Below the pieces are notes generated by a model, which was not told where the DNA came from, searched no databases, and worked only from the letters and a program-made list of their open reading frames with translations. DNA of 63,586 nt from Gammaproteobacteria bacterium (GTDB lineage: Bacteria > Pseudomonadota > Gammaproteobacteria > Eutrophobiales > Eutrophobiaceae). The stretch lies in contig JAPOQU010000114.1 of the NCBI GenBank assembly GCA_026710545.1, positions 1 through 63,586 on the forward strand, read 5' to 3'. This document shows positions 9,602-20,848 of the stretch, one piece after another (position 1 is the first letter of the stretch; every line of letters begins with the position of its first letter). The position numbers and the translations under genes are program-made.

Positions 9602-12313
9602 TCATTCGGGGTGCCGGACTCCATGCGTCTCCGCTTCCCCAGGTACAAGACAGGCCAGATTCTCTACGGCCGGCAAACCAAACGGGAGATCCAGCGTGTC
9701 GAGATGCGACTCGACGTACTGCCGCGCATCCGCCATGAGATCCGCAACGTCGTAAGCCGGGTACGCATCCGCAAACGCCAGGCTGCGGGGTTTGTCGGCC
9801 AGCGGGTTCAGGCGCTGCATCAGCTCCCAGTCACGAACCAGGGTCCATGCCCCGTCACCACCCGACTGGGCGGCTACGACGACGGCGCGAATGGGGCCAT
9901 CCGAGCCCGTGATGCGGTCCCGCACACTGAACACGAAGATCGGCGCGGCCAAGCCGCGGACGGCACCGAAGGCCCCGGTCAGCACCACCGCATCCCGAAC
10001 CGCTCGGTCGACGACCCGCAGACCGACCCCCGCGACATCCTCCCCGTCCTCCGGTTGTGGCTCCCGGGCGAACAAGAGGTCGTAGCGATCGACCACAGCG
10101 ATCGAGAAGTCGTCCTTCCACTCTTCCGGCGGGCGAAAGCGCAGGCGGCAGTCCTCCACTTGGTCGGGCCGCCGACCACGGACGGCGAGAACCGCTTTGA
10201 AAAACGGCACCAAGTCCGGCAGATCCACCCGCGGGATCTGGCCTGCTACCGCTCCGAAGTCGAAACGCGCGACATGGCCGACGAGATTGCGGACGGTGTT
10301 CACCGCGTCGTCGCCGCCGAACGTCGCGGTCTCCTTGTCGAACCACTCGCCGAGCGTTTGCCCCCTGAGAGTGGGGTCGGCGTCGGCAAACATTCTGGTG
10401 AACATGCGCGGCGATGTCATCCCGATTACAAGATGGCGAATGTCCTCCGGATCGTCCATCGCGCTCCGGAAAGCCAAGTTGATTCGCGTCAGCTTCTCGT
10501 CCAGAAGATCCCAGATTCGGCTCTCCACCGTGTCCGGATTCCGCACCGTGACTACATCGACAGGGTCGGTTTGGCCGTAGCGGCTCAAGCGCCCCACGCG
10601 CTGATGAAGGCGCATCGGATTCCACGGCAGATCCACATGAATCAAGGCGCTACAATGCTCCTGAAGGTCGACGCCCTCGCCGGCCGCTTCGGTGGAAACG
10701 AGAAAACGAACTTCCCCCCGGTTGAACCGTGCTGCCGCACTGTGTCGGTCTTCCGTTCGTCCCGATATGCTGCCGGACGAATCCTGCACATCCTCGACGA
10801 AGCCGTCGCCGTTGATGAACGCCACGCATCCATCGCCGTAGCGCTTGTGCAACGCACTCATGAGCAACGCCTGGGTCGCCTTGTATTCCGTGAAGAAGAG
10901 CACTGACCTGTCGGCGAACGACTCGTCGACCACGGTGAGGATGCGCTCGATCTTCGTCTCGTCGGTTACATCGTTTGCCGCCGCCAGCAATTCCTCGAGG
11001 GCCGGAATCTCGTCAGGATTGAGATCGACTCCGCGCAGGGTCTCCGCCACCCGCTCTTCCAGCCGACTGATTTCGTCCTGATTGGCCGGGTCGTCCTCGG
11101 CCAGCAGCTCTTGCAACCGCGCCAGATTCTCGCGCGACTCCTCCAATCTGCCCTTCGCCTGACGGAGACGGACGAGCCGTCGAGCAAGGGCCCGTCGCAC
11201 TGCCGCCACAGAACTCGACGCCAGCTTCTGCATCGTGATCAGTACCAGGATTACCGTGCGCCGATCCTGGGAGCCGAGACCGGCCGCGTAGGCTTTCCCA
11301 GTCACGATGAACTGCGTGAGCTGCTCGTAGAATCGAGCCTCTTGCGGCGAGTAGGTGTAGGTTTCGCGCCGTGATTGCACCGGGGTGAACAGCGGCTCGC
11401 CGGACATGTCCGTGACGGACTGCTTGTTGTTGCGAATCATGACGCTGCGGAGCTTCTCGGCCTGCTCTTCGAGAGGCTGTTCGGGATTGAAGTCGTCAGG
11501 TCGGACCAGCTTCAGCAGAGACAGGAATCCCTTGTCCTTGCCCCGGTGCGGCGTGCCGGTGAACAGCACCAGGGACTGTATCTTGCCTCGTTCTTGCAGG
11601 CCCTCCACAAGCTGGTAGGACAGCGTGCGATGGCCCTGTTCGTCGACGTTCATGTGATGGGCTTCGTCGATGAACACTAGATCCCAAGGCTGGGCGTCGA
11701 ACAGGCGCTCCCAACGATTACCCTTGTCGAGACGCAACGTATGTGCCGAGGCGATGACCCGGTCATGCGTATTCCAGAAGTCGGAAGCTTCCGTATCGGC
11801 GTCGGGAACGTAGATCGAGAGTCGGATGTCGAACATTTCACGCAGCCGCACCTGCCACTGCCCGACCAGACTGGCGGGCGCCAGGATTAGCAGCCGGCGC
11901 ACGCGCCCCGACGACAGCAGTGGGGTGAGGATGAGACCCGCTTCGATGGTCTTGCCAAGCCCTACGTCGTCCGCCACCAGCCATCGTGTGGGCCACGATT
12001 CGAGCACCCTCTTGCACACCCAGAGCTGGTGCGGCAGCAAGGCAATTCGGGATCGCGAGAAGACACCCCAGGCGTCGTTCACCGAACGGATGCACTCGCC
12101 GAGGATTCGCGTGACGACATGCAGTGCGGGGTCGAGTCGTCCAGCGGACATTCGCTCCGCCAGACCCTCGACGAGCTCGAGGTCGGCGGCCAAGCATGCT
12201 TCTATCCCGTGCTCGAAGCGGACGACGATGCTGTCGCCCTGATCCAGCACGACCTGGCCAGCACCGAAGCGGGAGTGGCGCACTGCCGCGTTCGTGTTGA
12301 AGGGTGCCGTCAT
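9602..12313 (-). CDS. SNF2/RapA-type DEAH helicase, second gene of candidate defence pair
   Basis: A 903-residue superfamily 2 ATPase. A short beta-rich N-terminal module (RHSRFGAGQVVLDQGDSIVVRFEHG, residues 12-36) is followed by the helicase core with Walker A DVGLGKTIEAG (116-126), DEAH (216-219), motif III LFTGTPHRGKDKG and, in the second RecA lobe, STEAAGEGVDLQ and HQRVGRLSRYGQ. A long coiled insertion (about residues 360-440) separates the lobes. About 250 C-terminal residues show no motif I recognise. The architecture resembles RapA and DrmD-type helicases of phage defence systems. The ATG overlaps the stop of the 2,562-residue gene by four bases (ATGA), so the two are coupled and probably work together. 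Confidence 0.85.
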   Translation of the reverse strand: MTAPFNTNAAVRHSRFGAGQVVLDQGDSIVVRFEHGIEACLAADLELVEGLAERMSAGRLDPALHVVTRILGECIRSVNDAWGVFSRSRIALLPHQLWVCKRVLESWPTRWLVADDVGLGKTIEAGLILTPLLSSGRVRRLLILAPASLVGQWQVRLREMFDIRLSIYVPDADTEASDFWNTHDRVIASAHTLRLDKGNRWERLFDAQPWDLVFIDEAHHMNVDEQGHRTLSYQLVEGLQERGKIQSLVLFTGTPHRGKDKGFLSLLKLVRPDDFNPEQPLEEQAEKLRSVMIRNNKQSVTDMSGEPLFTPVQSRRETYTYSPQEARFYEQLTQFIVTGKAYAAGLGSQDRRTVILVLITMQKLASSSVAAVRRALARRLVRLRQAKGRLEESRENLARLQELLAEDDPANQDEISRLEERVAETLRGVDLNPDEIPALEELLAAANDVTDETKIERILTVVDESFADRSVLFFTEYKATQALLMSALHKRYGDGCVAFINGDGFVEDVQDSSGSISGRTEDRHSAAARFNRGEVRFLVSTEAAGEGVDLQEHCSALIHVDLPWNPMRLHQRVGRLSRYGQTDPVDVVTVRNPDTVESRIWDLLDEKLTRINLAFRSAMDDPEDIRHLVIGMTSPRMFTRMFADADPTLRGQTLGEWFDKETATFGGDDAVNTVRNLVGHVARFDFGAVAGQIPRVDLPDLVPFFKAVLAVRGRRPDQVEDCRLRFRPPEEWKDDFSIAVVDRYDLLFAREPQPEDGEDVAGVGLRVVDRAVRDAVVLTGAFGAVRGLAAPIFVFSVRDRITGSDGPIRAVVVAAQSGGDGAWTLVRDWELMQRLNPLADKPRSLAFADAYPAYDVADLMADARQYVESHLDTLDLPFGLPAVENLACLVPGEAETHGVRHPE

Positions 12314-15300
12314 TGCTCCAGGCCGAACCGGTGGCGCAGATCGGTGTCGGAGACTACGTGCCGAAGCGGTATGTCGAATGCCAAGTGAAGATTCGGGGTT
12401 TCCGTCCCCAACTCGGTCGCCAGAAAGTCGAAGATGGCGCGCGCCTTGTCCGAGTTGGCCATGCCGTCGTCCGGCCGATCGAGACCGAGAGGTTCAAGCA
12501 GCCGAAGCACCTGCTCCGATGGTACCCAGCAGTCCCGGAACAGATGATCGCCCTTGACGACTTCCAGGCGCACAAGCTCCCGAAGAATCCAGTGGAGGCC
12601 CATGCCGAGCGGCGCGGGCGGAGCATCGAAGTGTGTACCCACACCTGTGAGTGCTTCGTCGACACGTGGCGCAAGCAAGCGGGTGGCTTGGTACATGCTT
12701 TCAGGTCGTCGTCCGGCAGACGTAAGCAGACGAACATAGACATCCTGAAACCGACTGAGCTGGTAGATTGCGGGAAACAGGGACATCCAGCGCGGATAGG
12801 TCAGCTTGGCCAATGCGTCGTCTTGCCAGTCTCGCAGCACTCCCATCCAGGCACCGGCATCGTCGGGGGTCTTGAATACCTCCCACCATCCCTGCCCGTG
12901 GACCAACTCGAGAAAGCTACGGTGATGAGAGTCCTGAGCACGACCGAGGCTGCGACACGCGCCCAGAACCAGCAGGGCGAGCCAGTGATCGACCGAGCCC
13001 ATTCGCAGGCGGGCCGCAATACCGTCTCTCCGCAGCCAATCCGGCCAAGCGTCCCTCTCGTAGTCCGAGATCACCTCACCGCGTACGGCCTCGTCATCCC
13101 ACCATTCCAATAGCTGTTGGAAGAAGATGCCGGAGTCCGGTCGGCCCGGCTCCGGTTGGAACTCCGGCGCACGGAACCGGTCGGGAAACAGAGCGCCCAG
13201 CAGTGACTGGTGACGCCAGTGTTCTTCGCACTGGTCTTCCACCAATCGGCAGACGTCTTCGTACTCTCGAAGCCAGAGCGGTCGCCCTTCGATGGGAACA
13301 AGATGCTGCAGAACGCTGGATCCGATCTCACCGTGCAGCAGGTAATGAATCGCCGCAGGTTGGAGGTCCTCGGGAAGGTCCGCGCACCACTCCGCCATCA
13401 TTGCGGCGTCGACACGATGCTGAACACGAAGCCACCGGAACACCCGCCAATCTTCGCTGCGTTCGATGTACGCCGGATCGAGGACCCGGTCGTCGGGTGC
13501 GAAGGCCGCCCGCAGGAGCTCGTCCCTGCCGTCCGCGTCAGTGTGATCGACCAAGTCCGAGGTATCATGCAGAAGAAGGCTTCGCAGTGGCTGGAGACTT
13601 CCATCCGCTGCCCGGGCCTTGAGGGCGCGGCGCCAAGTTACGCCTTGCGGATCGTACGCGTCGAAGTTCGAATCCCCACCTCCGTCGATGGGTCGCAACG
13701 CGTGCAACCGCTCCGGCGTCAAGTAGTGTTCCCACCGTTCAGCCAGCTCCGCAAACACGTTGGATGGACGAAGCGGAATCGGAGCGATGAAATTTCCCTC
13801 CGTCCCCGCGAGATTGCACAGCGGACGGAGGAGTTGCTCGACTTCAACCGAGACGACGCAGCGGCCGTCAACCAACGCCGTCAAGTCTTCGTCTTCAATT
13901 GCAACGAGGACGGCGCACATGTGACTGTCGAAATCGCCGCTCGCGACTTCAATCTGCACGTCCGATGTCAGCGGAGGAAGCAATGGCTGGAATGGTGCGG
14001 GAAGACCCGAGGGCACGGCCGAGCAGGCGCTCATCCAGGCCGACAGTCCACGCCCGTTCCCATGCAACTCGAGGAGAAACCTCCGGCGCAGTGCATCAGG
14101 GTTGTCCAAGCCACACGCGAGAACCCGCCAGAACGACGACAGGAAGCCCCGCACGTCACGGATGACCAGAGGGTCATGTGACGCATCCGCTGGATCGACC
14201 ACCACGTTGTGAAGCTCAATCAGACCCCGTCCAAGCGCTTCACCGAGGCCGCCGGCCGTCCGAAGGGTCGTATCGTCATCGAGCGATACATGGGTCCGGC
14301 CGGGGTCGAGCTTGAAGGGTCCATTGACGACGTATCCGCAGCCCCAACTCTCGCTCGTGGGCGTGACGTTCCAGAGGAACGGCACCTCCTCCTCCGGGTC
14401 GAAGGCCGTCGGAACATCCTCTCGGAGACCGACGGCCAGTGCCACGGTACCCATGTCTTCCCGTCCCGCGTCGGCGGGCCGGAAACGAAGGATTCGCCAG
14501 CGCCCGTCATGGTCGGGCAGCTCGGTTTGGGCGCCGACCGACCACCCGGGCGCGCCGTCGATGGGCTGTGCGTCGAAGACGTGGACGCCGGGAAACGGTC
14601 CGCCTTCCACAACGACTTTCCGCACTTGCCGCGCAAAAACGGGCAACAGGACACGTGTGAAGGCGAAGCGACGGAAGAGCCGCCCGATAAGAGTCCGCGC
14701 TTCGACGTCCTGGCGCAACGGCAACCTGACGCGGGTGGATCGACGGCCTTCGATCATCCATGAGTCCGTTTCGTCCGGGACAGGCCGTTCCCGCGGCAGC
14801 AAGCCCCCGGCAATGGTGAAGGCGATGAAGCCGCTGACCACGGACGGAGACGAAGAGACGAGATGAACGGACTTGAAGCCGAGGCCAAAGCGACCGGTGG
14901 TCGAAGACGATGAGGATTTTCCGGGCGCCTCACCGGGCTTGCCGCTCAGATTCATGAGCATCATGAAGTAGAGGTCCTGATCCCACTGACGCTCCCGCCT
15001 GGCCGGGAACGCCGCGCCTCCGGTGTCGTTGACTGGACGTCCCCAGTGCATGACGTCCACGGTGGGAGTGCTGTCATGTTCGTGGACTCGGATCAGGAGA
15101 CGGCGAGTGGCGGGCGGCAGCGGCCCACCCTTGATCTCGGTGGCCTCCGCAAGCGCATCGTCGGCATTCTGCGCAAGCTCCAACAGCACGCTGTCGTGTC
15201 CGTAGCCGTACCGCTGTATCAACTCGTTGACCCGCTTCCACAAGAATGACTGGTGCTGAGGTTCCTCGACGAGGGCCTCCAAGCGGTCCAGGGCTTCCCT

Positions 15301-18300
15301 CTCGATTTTGAGTGCTTCTTCAGAGGGCGCCTGCTCTCGCTTCCGTTGCGCTCGCTCGGCCTCCCTAAGCGCGCCCTGGAGCAGTTCGCTCTCCTGCACA
15401 TCGAGCTGCTGAAGCGTTAGTGGCAAGTGCGCCCTGATGGACGCGAGCACGGGACCAAAGTCCGCCTGGGACCCTTTACCCCATCGAGACCACCAGGCGT
15501 TCACATGCTCGCGGGGCAGCTTGAGGTACCGGGATGCCCATCTCTCGACGGTGCGGCCGAGCAACCGGATGAGGTGGGAACTGGAGCGGTTCTGCGGCTC
15601 GACGTCGCGCAGAGCGATTTCCCAGAAGGCACCAAGCGGTGCCAGCGCCGAAAACTGCGAGGGGGGATGCGGAACAGGATCGACGGCGAACAGCGTATCG
15701 CCATCGGCTTCTGCCTCCATCTCCACCCTCGATCCGAGGACGTTCACGGCACTGACTCGGTCACCACGAGCGACCTGAGGCGAGACCCATACACTGACGG
15801 CGTGCCGGTCCAATCCCTCTATCGGCTCGATGGCAACGTCTTCGCCCAGCCATTGCTGGGAGAGGTCCCCGATCCGATTGTTCAAGCCGTTTCCCAACAA
15901 GCTGAGAAACGCCCCCACGGCGCCATGTTGGACTCGGCCACGCCAAGGCTCGAAGTACTTCTCCAGCGCAAGCAATCCCGTTCCAGCCGGACTGCTTACA
16001 ACACTGCTCGCGTGGTGAACCGGATCAACACCGCTCAACCGGAGTATGGAGCGAAGCTCGGGAAGCAGCCGGTGCCGTCGCGCTACGCCGGTTTCGGTTC
16101 TCGCGACATCTTGGCTGGCGTGCCAATTGCCATCTTGGGTGGGTAGATCAATCTGTGGAAGGGCGCGAGCGAAAAAGTCGTCATTTTCCGCGAAGCATTC
16201 CAAGTATCTAAGGAACAGGCGCCCACCGGGAGAACCCTTTGCCGGTCTGGAGCCGGCGAGGCTCATCAGTATTTCAATCTGACGTTCCGGGGGGATTGGG
16301 GCACAGAGCGCCTTCACAAGCTTCACAAGAGGTTCCGAAGAATCTGGCAGCCGGTCGCCGCCGTACCCGACTACCCGGGCGGTCGCATGCACTAACTTCC
16401 AACCGGGATGGCTACCTGTGAGGGTCGTTTGCAGGGCATTCTCGACCAGGTAAGCGTCGACAAGACCGGGCTTCGACATGACGAGCCACGCGCCACCTTC
16501 GACCTGCTCGACCCGATCCGATACCACGGCGTCAACCATCCGCTGAACTTGGCGCTCGTGACCCAGGCGCCCGAGAAGTTCTCGAACCACAGGTTCCGCC
16601 GTCCCCCATATTCCTGAATCGACGGCTTCGGGAATCTGCTTGTCCCCGAAGGCACCGGCTGCGGCCAGACCAGCGACGGCATGCAGCAGTTCCTTCGGAA
16701 TAATGAGCACCGCATCCGGTGCGAGGGCGCCGCCATCGCGCCGGGGTAGCCAAAGACGACGTCTGAGCATGTCACGCAATGCGCCATTCTGCGGCAGGAG
16801 CACTGGCCCTTCCGAAGATCGAACGCTGTGCGCGATTTGTTCAGCGAAACGCCAGGGGCGCGAGTTCTCCAACATGAGTTGCAGAAGGCCATCGTGGTCC
16901 ATATCAGGAACCGAGTCGTAGAGATGGGCAATCTGGGGTTCCGGATCCAGGAGGCGTACCTCCGCTTCGAGTTCCGGCGGCAACCGCAATTTGTCCATCC
17001 TTCCCGACGAACGTCGTGCTCGGTGGTTGAACGCCCCGCGTACTCCATCAACCCCCCGGTGCAGTGGCATCATGGACCACCGTTCCCGCTCTTCGTGCGA
17101 CACGCTGTGCAAGTCCTGGAGCAGTTGCAGTGCCTCTTCGTCGCTGAGCTCCGTCCAGTCCACGGGTTTGTCCAGGCAGTCACCGAGCAGGCTATATAGT
17201 GTCTGGTAATCGGTCTGACCGACGGAAAGGGCTTCAAGAGCGTCTTGCGGAAGCGACTCCACCAACGTCTCTTGAACCGCGCACCATGACCGGTCCAACA
17301 GGCGCAGCAGGATGCGCATTGCTCGACCGTTTCCGGTGCGGTTATGGAACAGCTCTGCGTCCTCTCCGACGACGCCTGCGGCACGCCCGGCCAGAAGTAC
17401 ACGTGCGGCCCGGCGAATATCGGTGTTATCCAATGCTTCTGGTACTAGCCGCATCAGCAAGGGTTTCCGACATGCAGGATCGGCAAGCGCCTTGGCCCGA
17501 AGCACCGCACTGGCCAAAGCATCCGGCGCCGGTAACGGCACATCCGCGGCTATGGATGCCACCGCGTGGCCGCTGACCATCCAGACGGCTTCGTCGAGCG
17601 CCTTCGCGAGTTCCATGACGGCTGGCTTTGGGTCGGAAGGGTATTCCGGCTGGTTTCCGTCCGTGCCGTCGTTATCCGAATCCCCCGAATCCAGACTGGC
17701 GAATACACGGCGGTTCTCGATGTGGTGGCGCAGTTCAGTGATGGACCAAGCTTCCTCCCGGTCCTCAGGCAACCTGCTCACTCGCAACAAAGGCAGTCTA
17801 ACCAGGTGCTCGCCTAAGGGACGGTGGTGTCGTGTGGAAAGTAGACTCTCAGCGAGCAGAAGCCGGGAGTGGCGCAATCGCTCCGATTCGCCTCCCGCTT
17901 CCAAACGTCGTCCCAAGGTATGCAGCGCTCGATCCAGCCGTTCCTGGTCACGCTGAGGAACCGGTGGCGACTCGCCTTTACGGCGTCCGAACGGCACAGG
18001 GAACAACCCCTCGCCAAACACATCTCCAGCAGCGAGTTCGGTGACCGCCTGTTGGCTGCCCACGGGTGTTTCAACCAGCCAAGCATTCGGCAGCGCCCCG
18101 CACAGACCCCGCCACGCTTCCCGCAGCTCGTCGCGGGATTCTCGAGAGACGGAGCGTCGAGTCGTATGGGCAAGCGCCCCGTCGCCAATCCGTCCCAGAA
18201 GCCACCGAACCACCGTAGCGGCACGAATGTCCTCGTCACGGGCCTCCGAGCCAAGGGCATGACGGACAACTCCTTCGATCCATCGCAGTGACTGCGGGGA

Positions 18301-19998
18301 CCCAAACACATCGCCCGGAATGCAGTCCAGTAGGCGTTCGAAGCGGGCGACCGACCAGTCATCGAGGTCGCCTGCAAGGCGAGGGGCATCATCGTCAATG
18401 AATACGACGTCGTCCGTGCATTCGTCGCACGAGGCTGTGAACCGCTCGCTAACGACTTCCGGCGCCTGATCCCAATTTGGGATTGACAGAACGGGGTACG
18501 TGCTCGCGTCTAACGCTTTCCATCGAATTCCGTCGGCGGTGATGATTGGCAGCAGCCAATGCCGTTGCCGGATCAAGGCCAAGCGGTTCTCGACCATATC
18601 CGTGCGGACGACCGCATTTAGCAACCTCAGCGCCGCGCGCTCGTCGATTCCGACAACCGCATTGGCAAGGGCGCTAGGAAGCAAAGAGAGCAGCAATTTT
18701 TCGCATAGCGCCCGATTCCAACGAACGCGCATGCCGTCATCACCCGCGGGATCCGTTACGCCGGGAATGGACCTCCGGTCTTGGGAGGGCCAGAAGTAGC
18801 CGTGCAGGATGACCTCCCAGGCGGGCGAAGGACCCTTACATTCGACGATCGCACTGGACTGCGGATCGGGACCGTCGTCCAGCGGGAGGAACGCGGCCCA
18901 GCGAAGCCGTATTCCCGACAGATCGGCATCCAAATCGCTGGGTCGCAACACAGTGATCGCGGCGTGGGCGAGAGCTTTCCGAGGCTCCGAGGAGTAGCGA
19001 CCGTTCTCCCACTTCGGAGATTGTGGCCAATCCGACCGCGACCGAAGTTGGCGCAAGTCCTCACTGCCGCGTGCCTCGATTCCCACAACGGTCCAGCTCC
19101 GATCGTCGGAGGCAATCTTACCCTCGAACGTCCGGTCGGGAAGACACCCGCCGTCCTCCTCATATCGTCCCACCCAACCCACGGTCTGCCGCTCCACGCG
19201 CACCAGCCTCACGCGGTCGCGCAGACTTTCCGGCCCTGCCGCACGTTCCACACCAATAGAATGGAGATGCCCGCACTGCGCCAGAAGCAGCGTAGCGGGT
19301 GCGGAGCATCCAAATCGGGCACAGAGATCATCCGGCTGCGGATTGCGTTCACCCAAACCATATTGGCGACCCTCCACACCCCGATCCCGATGTTCGGTAC
19401 GCCGCAATGGTAGCCACAGCAGGAGGCCGTTGCTTGTATTCCCAAGAAGCTCCGTCGTTACGGACCGCAACCGCTCTACGTCAATCTCGTCCCAGTCGGG
19501 GTGCAGGGGATCGGCGTCTCCCTTCTCCCCAGTGCCGGCCCACGGGTTCAGAACGCCGGCCCGCCACTCTGACTTCTCAGCACCCATGTATAGAAATGCC
19601 TCGCAGATATGGAAAACGCTCTTCAGCCCAATGCCAAACGTTCCGATCTTGCTGGCCTCATCCTCCTTCGAGCCGCCGATGGCCTTATGCAGCGCCTCGC
19701 GGTCCTTATCTGGAAACGGCCCGTCGTTCGCTGCCAAAAGTGCAGGCCCACGGAGCAGGCTGTTTCGCGCATCGGGCCAGCCGTGCTCCAGCACCGTGAG
19801 TACGAGCCGTTGCGCACCTGCGTCGTCGGCGTTCTGTACCAGTTCCCGGAACAGCGTGCGTCCATCCCCGGCGTCCCTGTAGACGTCGGCCAAGAGAGTC
19901 TGGATTGCCTTGATCTCATCAAGTGGGCTTCGGACGATGCCGGTGTCGGTACGAACATCAACATCAGATAATCGCTTTGTGTTAGTACCCCCTTTCAT
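12310..19998 (-). CDS. giant protein with two sacsin/Hsp90-like ATPase modules
   Basis: A single uninterrupted frame of 2,562 residues. The first GHKL-type ATPase module is near the N-terminus: LFRELVQNADDAG (E52, N56, D58), then LLAANDGPFPDKDREALHKAI and IGTFGIGLKSVFHICE. A second, separately diverged module begins about residue 1,590 with LLELAQNADDALAEA and continues to RFGLGFKSVHLVSSSP. The N-terminal context resembles the sacsin repeat ATPase domain found in eukaryotic sacsin and in bacterial conflict systems. Between and after them are about 1,400 and 850 residues with no domain I can name. The first codons are AT-rich, unlike the rest of the gene. It is followed, with a four-base overlap, by the helicase. 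A role in anti-phage defence is inference. Confidence 0.8.
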   Translation of the reverse strand: MKGGTNTKRLSDVDVRTDTGIVRSPLDEIKAIQTLLADVYRDAGDGRTLFRELVQNADDAGAQRLVLTVLEHGWPDARNSLLRGPALLAANDGPFPDKDREALHKAIGGSKEDEASKIGTFGIGLKSVFHICEAFLYMGAEKSEWRAGVLNPWAGTGEKGDADPLHPDWDEIDVERLRSVTTELLGNTSNGLLLWLPLRRTEHRDRGVEGRQYGLGERNPQPDDLCARFGCSAPATLLLAQCGHLHSIGVERAAGPESLRDRVRLVRVERQTVGWVGRYEEDGGCLPDRTFEGKIASDDRSWTVVGIEARGSEDLRQLRSRSDWPQSPKWENGRYSSEPRKALAHAAITVLRPSDLDADLSGIRLRWAAFLPLDDGPDPQSSAIVECKGPSPAWEVILHGYFWPSQDRRSIPGVTDPAGDDGMRVRWNRALCEKLLLSLLPSALANAVVGIDERAALRLLNAVVRTDMVENRLALIRQRHWLLPIITADGIRWKALDASTYPVLSIPNWDQAPEVVSERFTASCDECTDDVVFIDDDAPRLAGDLDDWSVARFERLLDCIPGDVFGSPQSLRWIEGVVRHALGSEARDEDIRAATVVRWLLGRIGDGALAHTTRRSVSRESRDELREAWRGLCGALPNAWLVETPVGSQQAVTELAAGDVFGEGLFPVPFGRRKGESPPVPQRDQERLDRALHTLGRRLEAGGESERLRHSRLLLAESLLSTRHHRPLGEHLVRLPLLRVSRLPEDREEAWSITELRHHIENRRVFASLDSGDSDNDGTDGNQPEYPSDPKPAVMELAKALDEAVWMVSGHAVASIAADVPLPAPDALASAVLRAKALADPACRKPLLMRLVPEALDNTDIRRAARVLLAGRAAGVVGEDAELFHNRTGNGRAMRILLRLLDRSWCAVQETLVESLPQDALEALSVGQTDYQTLYSLLGDCLDKPVDWTELSDEEALQLLQDLHSVSHEERERWSMMPLHRGVDGVRGAFNHRARRSSGRMDKLRLPPELEAEVRLLDPEPQIAHLYDSVPDMDHDGLLQLMLENSRPWRFAEQIAHSVRSSEGPVLLPQNGALRDMLRRRLWLPRRDGGALAPDAVLIIPKELLHAVAGLAAAGAFGDKQIPEAVDSGIWGTAEPVVRELLGRLGHERQVQRMVDAVVSDRVEQVEGGAWLVMSKPGLVDAYLVENALQTTLTGSHPGWKLVHATARVVGYGGDRLPDSSEPLVKLVKALCAPIPPERQIEILMSLAGSRPAKGSPGGRLFLRYLECFAENDDFFARALPQIDLPTQDGNWHASQDVARTETGVARRHRLLPELRSILRLSGVDPVHHASSVVSSPAGTGLLALEKYFEPWRGRVQHGAVGAFLSLLGNGLNNRIGDLSQQWLGEDVAIEPIEGLDRHAVSVWVSPQVARGDRVSAVNVLGSRVEMEAEADGDTLFAVDPVPHPPSQFSALAPLGAFWEIALRDVEPQNRSSSHLIRLLGRTVERWASRYLKLPREHVNAWWSRWGKGSQADFGPVLASIRAHLPLTLQQLDVQESELLQGALREAERAQRKREQAPSEEALKIEREALDRLEALVEEPQHQSFLWKRVNELIQRYGYGHDSVLLELAQNADDALAEATEIKGGPLPPATRRLLIRVHEHDSTPTVDVMHWGRPVNDTGGAAFPARRERQWDQDLYFMMLMNLSGKPGEAPGKSSSSSTTGRFGLGFKSVHLVSSSPSVVSGFIAFTIAGGLLPRERPVPDETDSWMIEGRRSTRVRLPLRQDVEARTLIGRLFRRFAFTRVLLPVFARQVRKVVVEGGPFPGVHVFDAQPIDGAPGWSVGAQTELPDHDGRWRILRFRPADAGREDMGTVALAVGLREDVPTAFDPEEEVPFLWNVTPTSESWGCGYVVNGPFKLDPGRTHVSLDDDTTLRTAGGLGEALGRGLIELHNVVVDPADASHDPLVIRDVRGFLSSFWRVLACGLDNPDALRRRFLLELHGNGRGLSAWMSACSAVPSGLPAPFQPLLPPLTSDVQIEVASGDFDSHMCAVLVAIEDEDLTALVDGRCVVSVEVEQLLRPLCNLAGTEGNFIAPIPLRPSNVFAELAERWEHYLTPERLHALRPIDGGGDSNFDAYDPQGVTWRRALKARAADGSLQPLRSLLLHDTSDLVDHTDADGRDELLRAAFAPDDRVLDPAYIERSEDWRVFRWLRVQHRVDAAMMAEWCADLPEDLQPAAIHYLLHGEIGSSVLQHLVPIEGRPLWLREYEDVCRLVEDQCEEHWRHQSLLGALFPDRFRAPEFQPEPGRPDSGIFFQQLLEWWDDEAVRGEVISDYERDAWPDWLRRDGIAARLRMGSVDHWLALLVLGACRSLGRAQDSHHRSFLELVHGQGWWEVFKTPDDAGAWMGVLRDWQDDALAKLTYPRWMSLFPAIYQLSRFQDVYVRLLTSAGRRPESMYQATRLLAPRVDEALTGVGTHFDAPPAPLGMGLHWILRELVRLEVVKGDHLFRDCWVPSEQVLRLLEPLGLDRPDDGMANSDKARAIFDFLATELGTETPNLHLAFDIPLRHVVSDTDLRHRFGLEQ

Positions 19999-20255
19999 AA
20001 AACTTCGCTGCAGTGTCCTTTATTGCTGTTAATTGATGAACGCCGCAAAAGTCGATATAAACTAAAGTGCCAGTTCGTTCGTCTTTACATTCATGCCATG
20101 TGCCAAATATTTGGATGTCTTACTTAAGGACTGCTGCCAGTACGTAATAGTCATTCGAATAAGGCTTTATCCCTATGAGTTTTTTTCCATATATATCAAA
20201 CTGGCAGGTCGTGAAGAATTGTACTGATCCGATCCAGGACGCATCCGTGTATCTG
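19999..20255. other. AT-rich intergenic region at the composition boundary
   Basis: About 260 bases between the start of the giant ATPase gene and the hicA stop. The base composition drops sharply relative to everything on the left. The promoter of the giant-gene operon should lie here, reading leftward. A 44-codon plus-strand frame (20,093-20,227) has no recognisable motif and was not called. No repeat, tRNA or integrase gene marks an island end. Confidence 0.4.
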
Positions 20256-20525
20256 TTACTTGATCAGTTTCAATCTTTTCAAATCTTCGATTGACCAGCC
20301 AATCTGTCTCAACAGTCCCTTGAGTAGTTTTGGACCATACGTCTTTTTCGGATGGTAATGCAGTACGATGCGATTAAGTGTTGTTCCGTTTTCTCCCCGC
20401 TTGATATACGGATGCCTGGCGCCGTTTGCCTTACCCTTTATCCATCCGTCAGCTTCCAGGGCTTTCATCAGCTTCTCTACAGTGATATTTTTAAGCTGAT
20501 TCCAGACGTTAGCCTTGTAGTCCAT
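20256..20525 (-). CDS. hicA: HicA-like mRNA interferase toxin
   Basis: An 89-residue protein, longer than minimal HicA (about 60) but with the double-stranded-RNA-binding-like core: TVEKLMKALEADGWIKGKANGARHPYIKR, then LHYHPKKTYGPKLLKGLLRQIGWS. The conserved catalytic histidine is in the GARHPYIK segment. HicA cleaves mRNA when released from HicB. The ATG shares one base with the hicB stop, so the pair is coupled with the antitoxin gene first. The hicB-then-hicA order is the less common arrangement but well documented. Confidence 0.82.
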   Translation of the reverse strand: MDYKANVWNQLKNITVEKLMKALEADGWIKGKANGARHPYIKRGENGTTLNRIVLHYHPKKTYGPKLLKGLLRQIGWSIEDLKRLKLIK

Positions 20526-20848
20526 TATGCGTAAGACAAATCTGATATGTCCAAATCTTCAAATTTTACGATGGGCTTGTTTTTGAAAAATATGGCTGAC
20601 CTTACCTTGCCCAGGAGCAAAGAAAATGACATATCGACTTCCTCTGCACAGAGTGGCAACGGTTCATTGTGTTCAAGGATGGATTGAATATAAACCAGGG
20701 CGGATTCTTTGGCATTTTCGGTGGCTGCCTCAACCGAGGCTCCATCTTCATGCACGCCTTTTAGTTCAGGGCAATATGCATAATATCCACCATCGTCTTT
20801 CTCCACACATATTCTGATCCTGATTTTAAGGCATTTCAGTTGTATCAT
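20525..20848 (-). CDS. hicB: HicB-like antitoxin
   Basis: A 107-residue protein with the RNase-H-like HicB fold: IRICVEKDDGGYYAYCPELKGVHEDGASVEAATENAKESALVYIQSILEHNEPLP. The pattern of an aromatic-rich strand followed by CPELKG and a helix is diagnostic. The C-terminal portion after residue 70 is short and basic, with no clear helix-turn-helix or ribbon-helix-helix. It may neutralise the toxin without strong DNA binding of its own. GGGGAAG precedes the ATG. It lies upstream of, and overlaps, hicA. Confidence 0.82.
   Translation of the reverse strand: MIQLKCLKIRIRICVEKDDGGYYAYCPELKGVHEDGASVEAATENAKESALVYIQSILEHNEPLPLCAEEVDMSFSLLLGKVRSAIFFKNKPIVKFEDLDISDLSYA

What the first reader, a model, noticed from the sequence alone, without database searches (positions are those of the whole stretch)
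9602..19998. Two-gene operon: giant double-sacsin/Hsp90-like ATPase protein plus SNF2-type helicase
Seen: a 2,562-residue protein with two separate GHKL-type ATPase modules (ENADD-like motif at residues 52-59 and again near 1,600), translationally coupled (ATGA overlap) to a 903-residue DEAH helicase with a RapA-like N-terminal module. The pair lies beside a ParS/RES toxin-antitoxin module and an AAA-ATPase remnant. Known: sacsin-like ATPases and DrmD/RapA-type helicases recur in bacterial conflict systems. Inference: the pair is a defence system in which a chaperone-like ATPase platform senses or remodels an infection signal and the helicase acts on nucleic acid. Two such ATPase domains in one bacterial chain is unusual.
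Basis: partly seen in the sequence, partly recalled or inferred. Interest (0 to 1): 0.78.

Follow-up and report, generated by a model that had tools for sequence, protein, structure and literature searches.

The report
Double-Hsp90-like giant plus helicase defence pair
Two neighbouring bacterial genes, one for a giant protein with two Hsp90-like ATP engines and one for a DNA-motor helicase, travel together across at least twelve phyla inside anti-virus gene islands, and so look like an unnamed two-gene immune system.

Summary
Both modules keep the catalytic Glu, Asn/Asp box, glycine loop and Hsp90-middle-domain arginine in every complete sequence compared. The pair is a real unit: 39 of 40 testable genome loci with this helicase clade have the giant directly upstream; 37 of 39 loci with the next most similar helicases do not, and the other two carry a distant version of the same pair. 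Distances between giants and between helicases correlate at r = 0.90. The clade spans at least 12 phyla, is absent from 57 relatives, lies on plasmids, and is flanked by BREX, DISARM and restriction genes far more often than random regions are. PADLOC calls the helicase 'DrmD', but no DISARM gene accompanies it here and it misses NCBI's DrmD cut-off. No held paper describes the pair. Most likely it is an unnamed defence system in which the faster-evolving giant senses infection and licenses the helicase to act on invading DNA. The defence role is inferred, not tested. Novelty: known parts in a new combination.

The parts
12310..19998 (-). Giant double-GHKL (sacsin/Hsp90-like) protein, 2562 aa
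   Evidence: Pfam SACS, NCBIfam P_loop_sacsin; ORF; 27 single-ORF homologues of 2300-2590 aa
18684..19941 (-). ATPase cassette 1, about residues 20-438: N-box E52/Q55/N56/D59, G1 N91-D92-G93, G2 G119/G122/G124/K126, putative catalytic Arg R408
   Evidence: Invariant or nearly so in 28-30 sequences; hhalign to cassette 2, probability 98
15274..18683 (-). Middle region, about residues 439-1575: mostly helical, poorly conserved, no catalytic-type residue cluster
   Evidence: Conservation; AlphaFold2 pLDDT 77, pTM 0.45, only generic helical-repeat matches, Z 6.1 or less
14017..15273 (-). ATPase cassette 2, about residues 1576-1994: N-box E1607/Q1610/N1611/D1614, altered G1 H-W-G-R-xx-N (1651-1657), G2 G1702-FGLGFK1709, putative catalytic Arg R1901
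   Evidence: model pLDDT 82.5, TRAP1 7kcl Z 17.0, rmsd 6.8, 319 aligned
12310..14016 (-). C-terminal helical region, about residues 1995-2562, with conserved W2299-W2300, R2473-E2474 and D2542-x-P2544
9602..12313 (-). RapA-like SNF2 (SF2) helicase, 903 aa; overlaps the giant by ATGA
   Evidence: helicase motifs over 95% conserved in 47 sequences

Best explanation
The two genes are an unnamed two-protein defence system against phages or other invading DNA. SHOWN by sequence: one chain carries two complete Hsp90-type N+middle ATPase cassettes, is co-translated and co-inherited with a RapA-like SNF2 motor, moves between phyla and sits in defence islands. INFERRED: the giant is the sensor and platform. 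ATP binding closes its two cassettes, on each other within the chain or in a dimer, as in Hsp90, GyrB and MutL clamps, around an infection-linked client (a phage protein or a DNA/replication intermediate). Closure recruits or licenses the helicase, which translocates on the invading DNA and strips or stalls replication or transcription complexes. No nuclease or methylase belongs to the unit, so interference is by remodelling or by handing DNA to host nucleases, and self/non-self discrimination must come from the giant rather than from DNA marking.
For: Pairing: 39 of 40 testable loci. Controls with other RapA-like helicases: 37 of 39 have no such giant, and the two exceptions (L085, L087) carry a colinear diverged double-GHKL partner. 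Similarity between the two copies in this genome ends at the helicase stop. Co-divergence r = 0.90, 0 of 5000 permutations. All catalytic residues conserved in both cassettes, as required in sacsin (PMC9880540). Hsp90/TRAP1 fold. Defence-island context: 671 PADLOC family matches in 195 neighbour proteins against 10 families in 138 proteins of random regions. Plasmid and viral-contig carriage. Absent in 57 relatives. The giant diverges faster (median identity 23% against 47%; dN/dS 0.13-0.29 against 0.04-0.14), the pattern used to call DruH the sensor of Druantia III (PMC13192584).
Against: No phage assay exists. No contact between the two proteins was modelled. The middle region has no assigned fold, so an effector domain could be hidden there. 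Faster divergence of the giant may reflect relaxed constraint rather than an arms race: all dN/dS values are below 1. PADLOC family counts are inflated by redundant models, and the random regions come from other hosts. Defence islands also hold plasmid-competition and mobile-element genes.
Confidence: 0.6

Rival explanations
1. Direction reversed: the helicase is the sensor (DNA ends or stalled forks) and the giant is the effector, killing or arresting the cell through its ATPase platform, as the helicase HamB senses and HamA cuts in Hachiman.
For: In Hachiman the helicase senses DNA integrity and restrains the partner (PMC12278908). The helicase is the slower-evolving part.
Against: No nuclease or other toxic domain was found in the giant by Pfam, NCBIfam or PADLOC, and the middle region shows no conserved catalytic cluster.
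Confidence: 0.2
2. A DISARM variant: the helicase is DrmD and the giant is a DISARM accessory.
For: PADLOC DrmD model PDLC02634 matches at full length, 962 bits. The Trichormus copy lies about 5 kb from drmA and drmC.
Against: NCBIfam DrmD scores 286 of 610 and 170 of 950. No PADLOC hit in 42 other window ORFs. DrmA-type models match only 2 of 84 proteins in one neighbour set, and immediate neighbours vary from locus to locus.
Confidence: 0.08
3. A housekeeping or stress machine: a sacsin-like proteostasis platform with a RapA-like RNA-polymerase recycling factor.
For: Sacsin and Hsp90 are chaperones; RapA is the best solved relative of the helicase.
Against: Rare and patchy (about 41 loci found among 84,980 species, a lower bound; none in 57 relatives), on plasmids, often broken or duplicated, and in defence islands.
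Confidence: 0.05
4. Two independent single-gene defence proteins (a Tiamat-like ATPase and a helicase) that only share an island.
For: PADLOC TmtA (Tiamat) models are the only defence models that match the giant.
Against: Direct adjacency in 39 of 40 loci, stop/start overlap in most, co-divergence r = 0.90. The only unpaired giants seen on plasmids are truncated at the helicase side.
Confidence: 0.05

Closest known systems
Tiamat (TmtA), single-gene defence protein
   Same: Sacsin-type GHKL module; the only PADLOC family that matches the giant
   Different: TmtA models match only the GHKL stretches (for example 36-133 against 21-108 of 1370); the giant is far longer, has two full cassettes and is co-encoded with a helicase
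DrmD (DISARM), BrxHI/BrxHII (BREX) and HmaA helicases
   Same: RapA-like SNF2 helicase; PADLOC DrmD PDLC02634 matches at full length
   Different: Below NCBIfam DrmD cut-offs; partners are a giant GHKL protein, not DrmA/B/C, PglX/PglZ or a methylase
Druantia III (DruH + DruE)
   Same: Two genes: a large, fast-evolving protein plus a conserved helicase (PMC13192584)
   Different: DruE is a YprA-family helicase-nuclease and DruH is not GHKL; no DruH model matches the giant. An analogy of working, not membership
Eukaryotic sacsin
   Same: Several Hsp90 N+middle cassettes in one giant chain, with the same catalytic Glu, Asn and Arg
   Different: Sacsin has three repeats plus DnaJ and HEPN domains; here there are two cassettes and a separate SNF2 helicase

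Membership tests
Sacsin-type GHKL (Pfam SACS) | SACS profile above the gathering score | tested here: met
   100.6 bits against 32.8, two stretches
Hsp90-type ATPase cassette (N + middle domain) | N-box Glu/Asn/Asp, GxxGxG loop and middle-domain Arg | tested here: met
   Both cassettes, 28-35 sequences
Hsp90-type ATPase cassette (N + middle domain) | Hsp90 N+M fold | tested here: met
   Cassette 2: TRAP1 7kcl Z 17.0, rmsd 6.8, 319 aligned. Cassette 1 was tested by profile and motifs only
Hsp90 proper | C-terminal dimerisation domain | tested here: inconclusive
   VIA rows cover model residues 1-471 only
SNF2/RapA-like helicase | SF2 motifs and RapA-like similarity | tested here: met
DISARM | drmA, drmB, drmC and a methylase in the locus | tested here: not met
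   No PADLOC match at 1e-5 in 42 other window ORFs
DISARM | DrmD equivalog score (NCBIfam) | tested here: not met
   285.6 of 610 and 170 of 950; but PADLOC PDLC02634 962 bits
BREX | PglZ, BrxC and PglX beside the helicase | tested here: not met
   None in the window
Hma | m5C methylase HmaB and ATPase HmaC | tested here: not met
   No HmaC match to the giant; no methylase model in the window
Tiamat | Full-length TmtA similarity, single gene | tested here: not met
   Matches confined to the GHKL stretches; nearly always with the helicase
Druantia III | DruH and a YprA-type DruE | tested here: not met
   The giant matches no DruH model; the helicase is SNF2/RapA-like
Any defence system | Protection against phage or plasmid in an assay | not testable with these tools
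   No experiment can be run here

The most novel reading that the evidence does not exclude
A bacterial immune system built on an intramolecular Hsp90-type clamp: two non-identical N+middle ATPase cassettes in one chain (the second with a conserved non-canonical H-W-G-R-xx-N adenine-site motif) close on each other on sensing infection and gate a nuclease-free RapA-like motor, so that discrimination rests on an Hsp90-like sensor and not on DNA modification.
Probability: 0.3. Interest if true: 0.82.

Novelty: new variant of a known kind. Interest (0 to 1): 0.66.

Why it matters
Hsp90/sacsin-type ATPases are known as chaperones, and bacterial sacsin-like proteins in defence (Tiamat) have no reported mechanism that I found. 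A compact, widespread two-gene pair with two intact Hsp90 N+M cassettes and a RapA-like motor gives a tractable system to ask what an Hsp90-like machine does in immunity. It would also put a name to a helicase clade that databases now file as DrmD or BrxH, and it bears on where the multi-cassette architecture of eukaryotic sacsin comes from.

Tried and rejected
DISARM, BREX, Hma and Druantia membership were tested and not met. A third fixed component was sought in the immediate flanks of the pair: neighbours differ in nearly every locus. A nuclease or other effector in the giant was sought by Pfam, NCBIfam, PADLOC, PDB profile and fold search. The middle model (380-1575) gave only generic helical-repeat matches (Z up to 6.1), which is not evidence of a new fold. 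Assembly duplication was considered for the C31 copy and rejected: 83.5% DNA identity and a different downstream context that matches the genus. Relatives do not share one clean empty site at C31: the sequence beyond the conserved GMC gene differs in each. The viral collection held one pair only, found with both queries. No structure was predicted for the helicase or for cassette 1: the two folding jobs went to the unnamed regions of the giant. The careful tree did not finish; the tree cited is the quick one with SH-aLRT support only.

Full report
OBSERVATION. The giant scores 100.6 bits with Pfam SACS (cut-off 32.8) and 105.8 with NCBIfam P_loop_sacsin (cut-off 50), each with more than one stretch. 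The helicase matches SNF2-rel_dom and Helicase_C; its best solved relative is RapA. The RES/Xre genes and the AAA_14 fragment are there; a HicA/HicB pair on the other side was missed.

IT IS A CONSERVED PAIR. tblastn on plasmids found the helicase at 47-50% identity, full length or nearly so, in Trichormus, two Deinococcus species and Sphingomonas, each next to a giant relative. A scan of 84,980 genomes with the helicase alignment gave 41 loci at 42-83% identity and then a sharp drop to about 35%. With profiles, 40 of the 41 have room upstream. In 39 of these the giant lies directly upstream on the same strand, with stop/start overlap or a gap under 30 bases in nearly all; in two Chromatiaceae loci a Phd/PIN-like toxin-antitoxin pair sits between them. 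The one exception, L036, keeps only an N-terminal remnant with other genes in between. Of 39 control loci with the next most similar RapA-like helicases, 37 lack such a giant. The other two, from Verrucomicrobia (L085, L087), turn out to carry a colinear, diverged double-GHKL partner in one or two ORFs beside a helicase that is only 31-32% identical and that PADLOC would call BrxH. The association is therefore older than this helicase clade.

CO-INHERITANCE AND MOBILITY. Across 28 complete pairs the distances of giants and helicases correlate at r = 0.90 (0 of 5000 permutations); median identities are 23% and 47%. The helicase clade has SH-aLRT 100 on a quick tree against outgroups and, counting the Deinococcus plasmids, spans at least 12 named phyla, with phyla mixed inside it. 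None of 57 relatives of the window genome has the giant. The same genome has a second copy at the edge of contig C31: 83.5% identical at DNA level, similarity ending at the helicase stop, and downstream genes that match the genus. Deinococcus wulumuqiensis also has two copies. Unpaired giants on plasmids (Haematobacter, Synechocystis) are truncated at the helicase side and lie near transposases.

DEFENCE ISLANDS. 195 neighbouring proteins gave 94 + 263 + 314 PADLOC family matches at 1e-10 (BrxL, PglX, PglZ, type IIG and III enzymes, pAgo, DrmMI, SspC, GajB and others); 138 proteins from 16 random 12-kb regions gave 10. The models are redundant, so only the contrast counts, not the figure. No neighbour recurs at a fixed place, which argues for a two-gene unit. 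In the window itself nothing else scores as defence apart from the truncated PDC-S01-like AAA fragment.

ANATOMY OF THE GIANT. In 28-35 sequences the N-box (E52, Q55, N56, D59; E1607, Q1610, N1611, D1614) and the glycine loop (G119, G122, G124, K126; G1702, G1705, G1707, K1709) are invariant or nearly so. The arginine that corresponds to Hsp90 R380 and sacsin R474 is R408 in HGxFFxDxGR and R1901 in NxxFxxDxGR, invariant in both (role of the residue: PMC9880540; the equivalence is my alignment-based inference). Cassette 2 has a conserved H-W-G-R-xx-N where Hsp90 has the adenine-binding D-x-G; cassette 1 keeps N-[DN]-G. The cassettes are homologous (hhalign probability 98). A model of residues 1560-2562 (pLDDT 82.5) matches the Hsp90 N and middle domains (TRAP1 7kcl Z 17.0, rmsd 6.8, 319 aligned), and also GyrB, ParE and MORC3. 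The middle region (pLDDT 77) is helical and gives only generic repeat matches. It has no conserved catalytic-type cluster. Three cyanobacteria split the gene at the same point (profile 817/825-828), so cassette 1 with its neighbourhood can be a separate chain.

SELECTION. dN/dS is below 1 everywhere, so both genes are maintained: helicase 0.04-0.14, giant 0.13-0.29 in the same pairs. The giant is the faster partner, as DruH is against DruE in Druantia III, where this was used with other data to call DruH the sensor (PMC13192584).

HOW IT MOST LIKELY WORKS. Shown: two intact Hsp90-type ATPase cassettes in one chain, co-translated and co-inherited with an intact SNF2 motor, mobile, and in defence islands. 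Inferred: the giant senses infection and its ATP-driven closure licenses the helicase to remodel invading DNA or the complexes on it. There is no nuclease or methylase in the unit. The main rival reverses the roles (helicase sensor, giant effector), as in Hachiman.

KNOWN OR NEW. PADLOC's DrmD model PDLC02634 matches the helicase along its whole length, so the helicase clade has been seen; the naming as DISARM is not borne out. The giant's only defence relative in PADLOC is TmtA (Tiamat), by its GHKL stretches alone. Nine of ten allowed literature searches found no description of the pair; subscription papers and most preprints are not held, so prior description cannot be excluded.

Noticed in passing
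20256-20848 (-): HicA/HicB toxin-antitoxin pair directly upstream of the giant, in DNA of 43% GC against 62% for the giant; the intergenic stretch 19999-20255 is 40% GC.
   Followed up: partly
about 20000: GC content of the contig steps from 62-65% on the left to about 54% on the right; genus matches are weaker on the left (66-73%) than at the best right-hand gene (81%).
   Followed up: partly
L103:1-3260 (contig C31 of the same genome): Second copy: identity to the window rises to 96% toward the contig edge inside the giant and falls off after the helicase stop, which suggests recombination between copies and an assembly break there.
   Followed up: partly
L085:4231-12706 and L087:4060-12610: Distant sister version of the pair in Verrucomicrobia; cassette 2 N-box degraded to QNAESA while cassette 1 stays intact.
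   Followed up: partly
L036:223-8575: Thiocystis locus in which most of the giant is missing and other genes, including an Eco57I-like methylase and a MazF-like toxin by eye, lie between its N-terminal remnant and the intact helicase.
   Followed up: no
L033:9230-9976, L034:9290-9972: Phd/PIN-like toxin-antitoxin pair (by eye) inserted between giant and helicase.
   Followed up: no
L021:8781-15993: In Sphingomonas changnyeongensis the giant appears broken by a frameshift inside cassette 2 (by eye), with an IS3 transposase downstream of the helicase.
   Followed up: no
giant residues 1560-2562: Fold search against viral models matches phage RIIA proteins (E about 1e-6); whether phage RIIA-type GHKL proteins interact with such systems is an open thought.
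   Followed up: no
L121:3517-7734: A 1405-aa protein with a weak GHKL match lies next to the truncated giant on the Haematobacter plasmid, beside a RecB-like nuclease gene.
   Followed up: no
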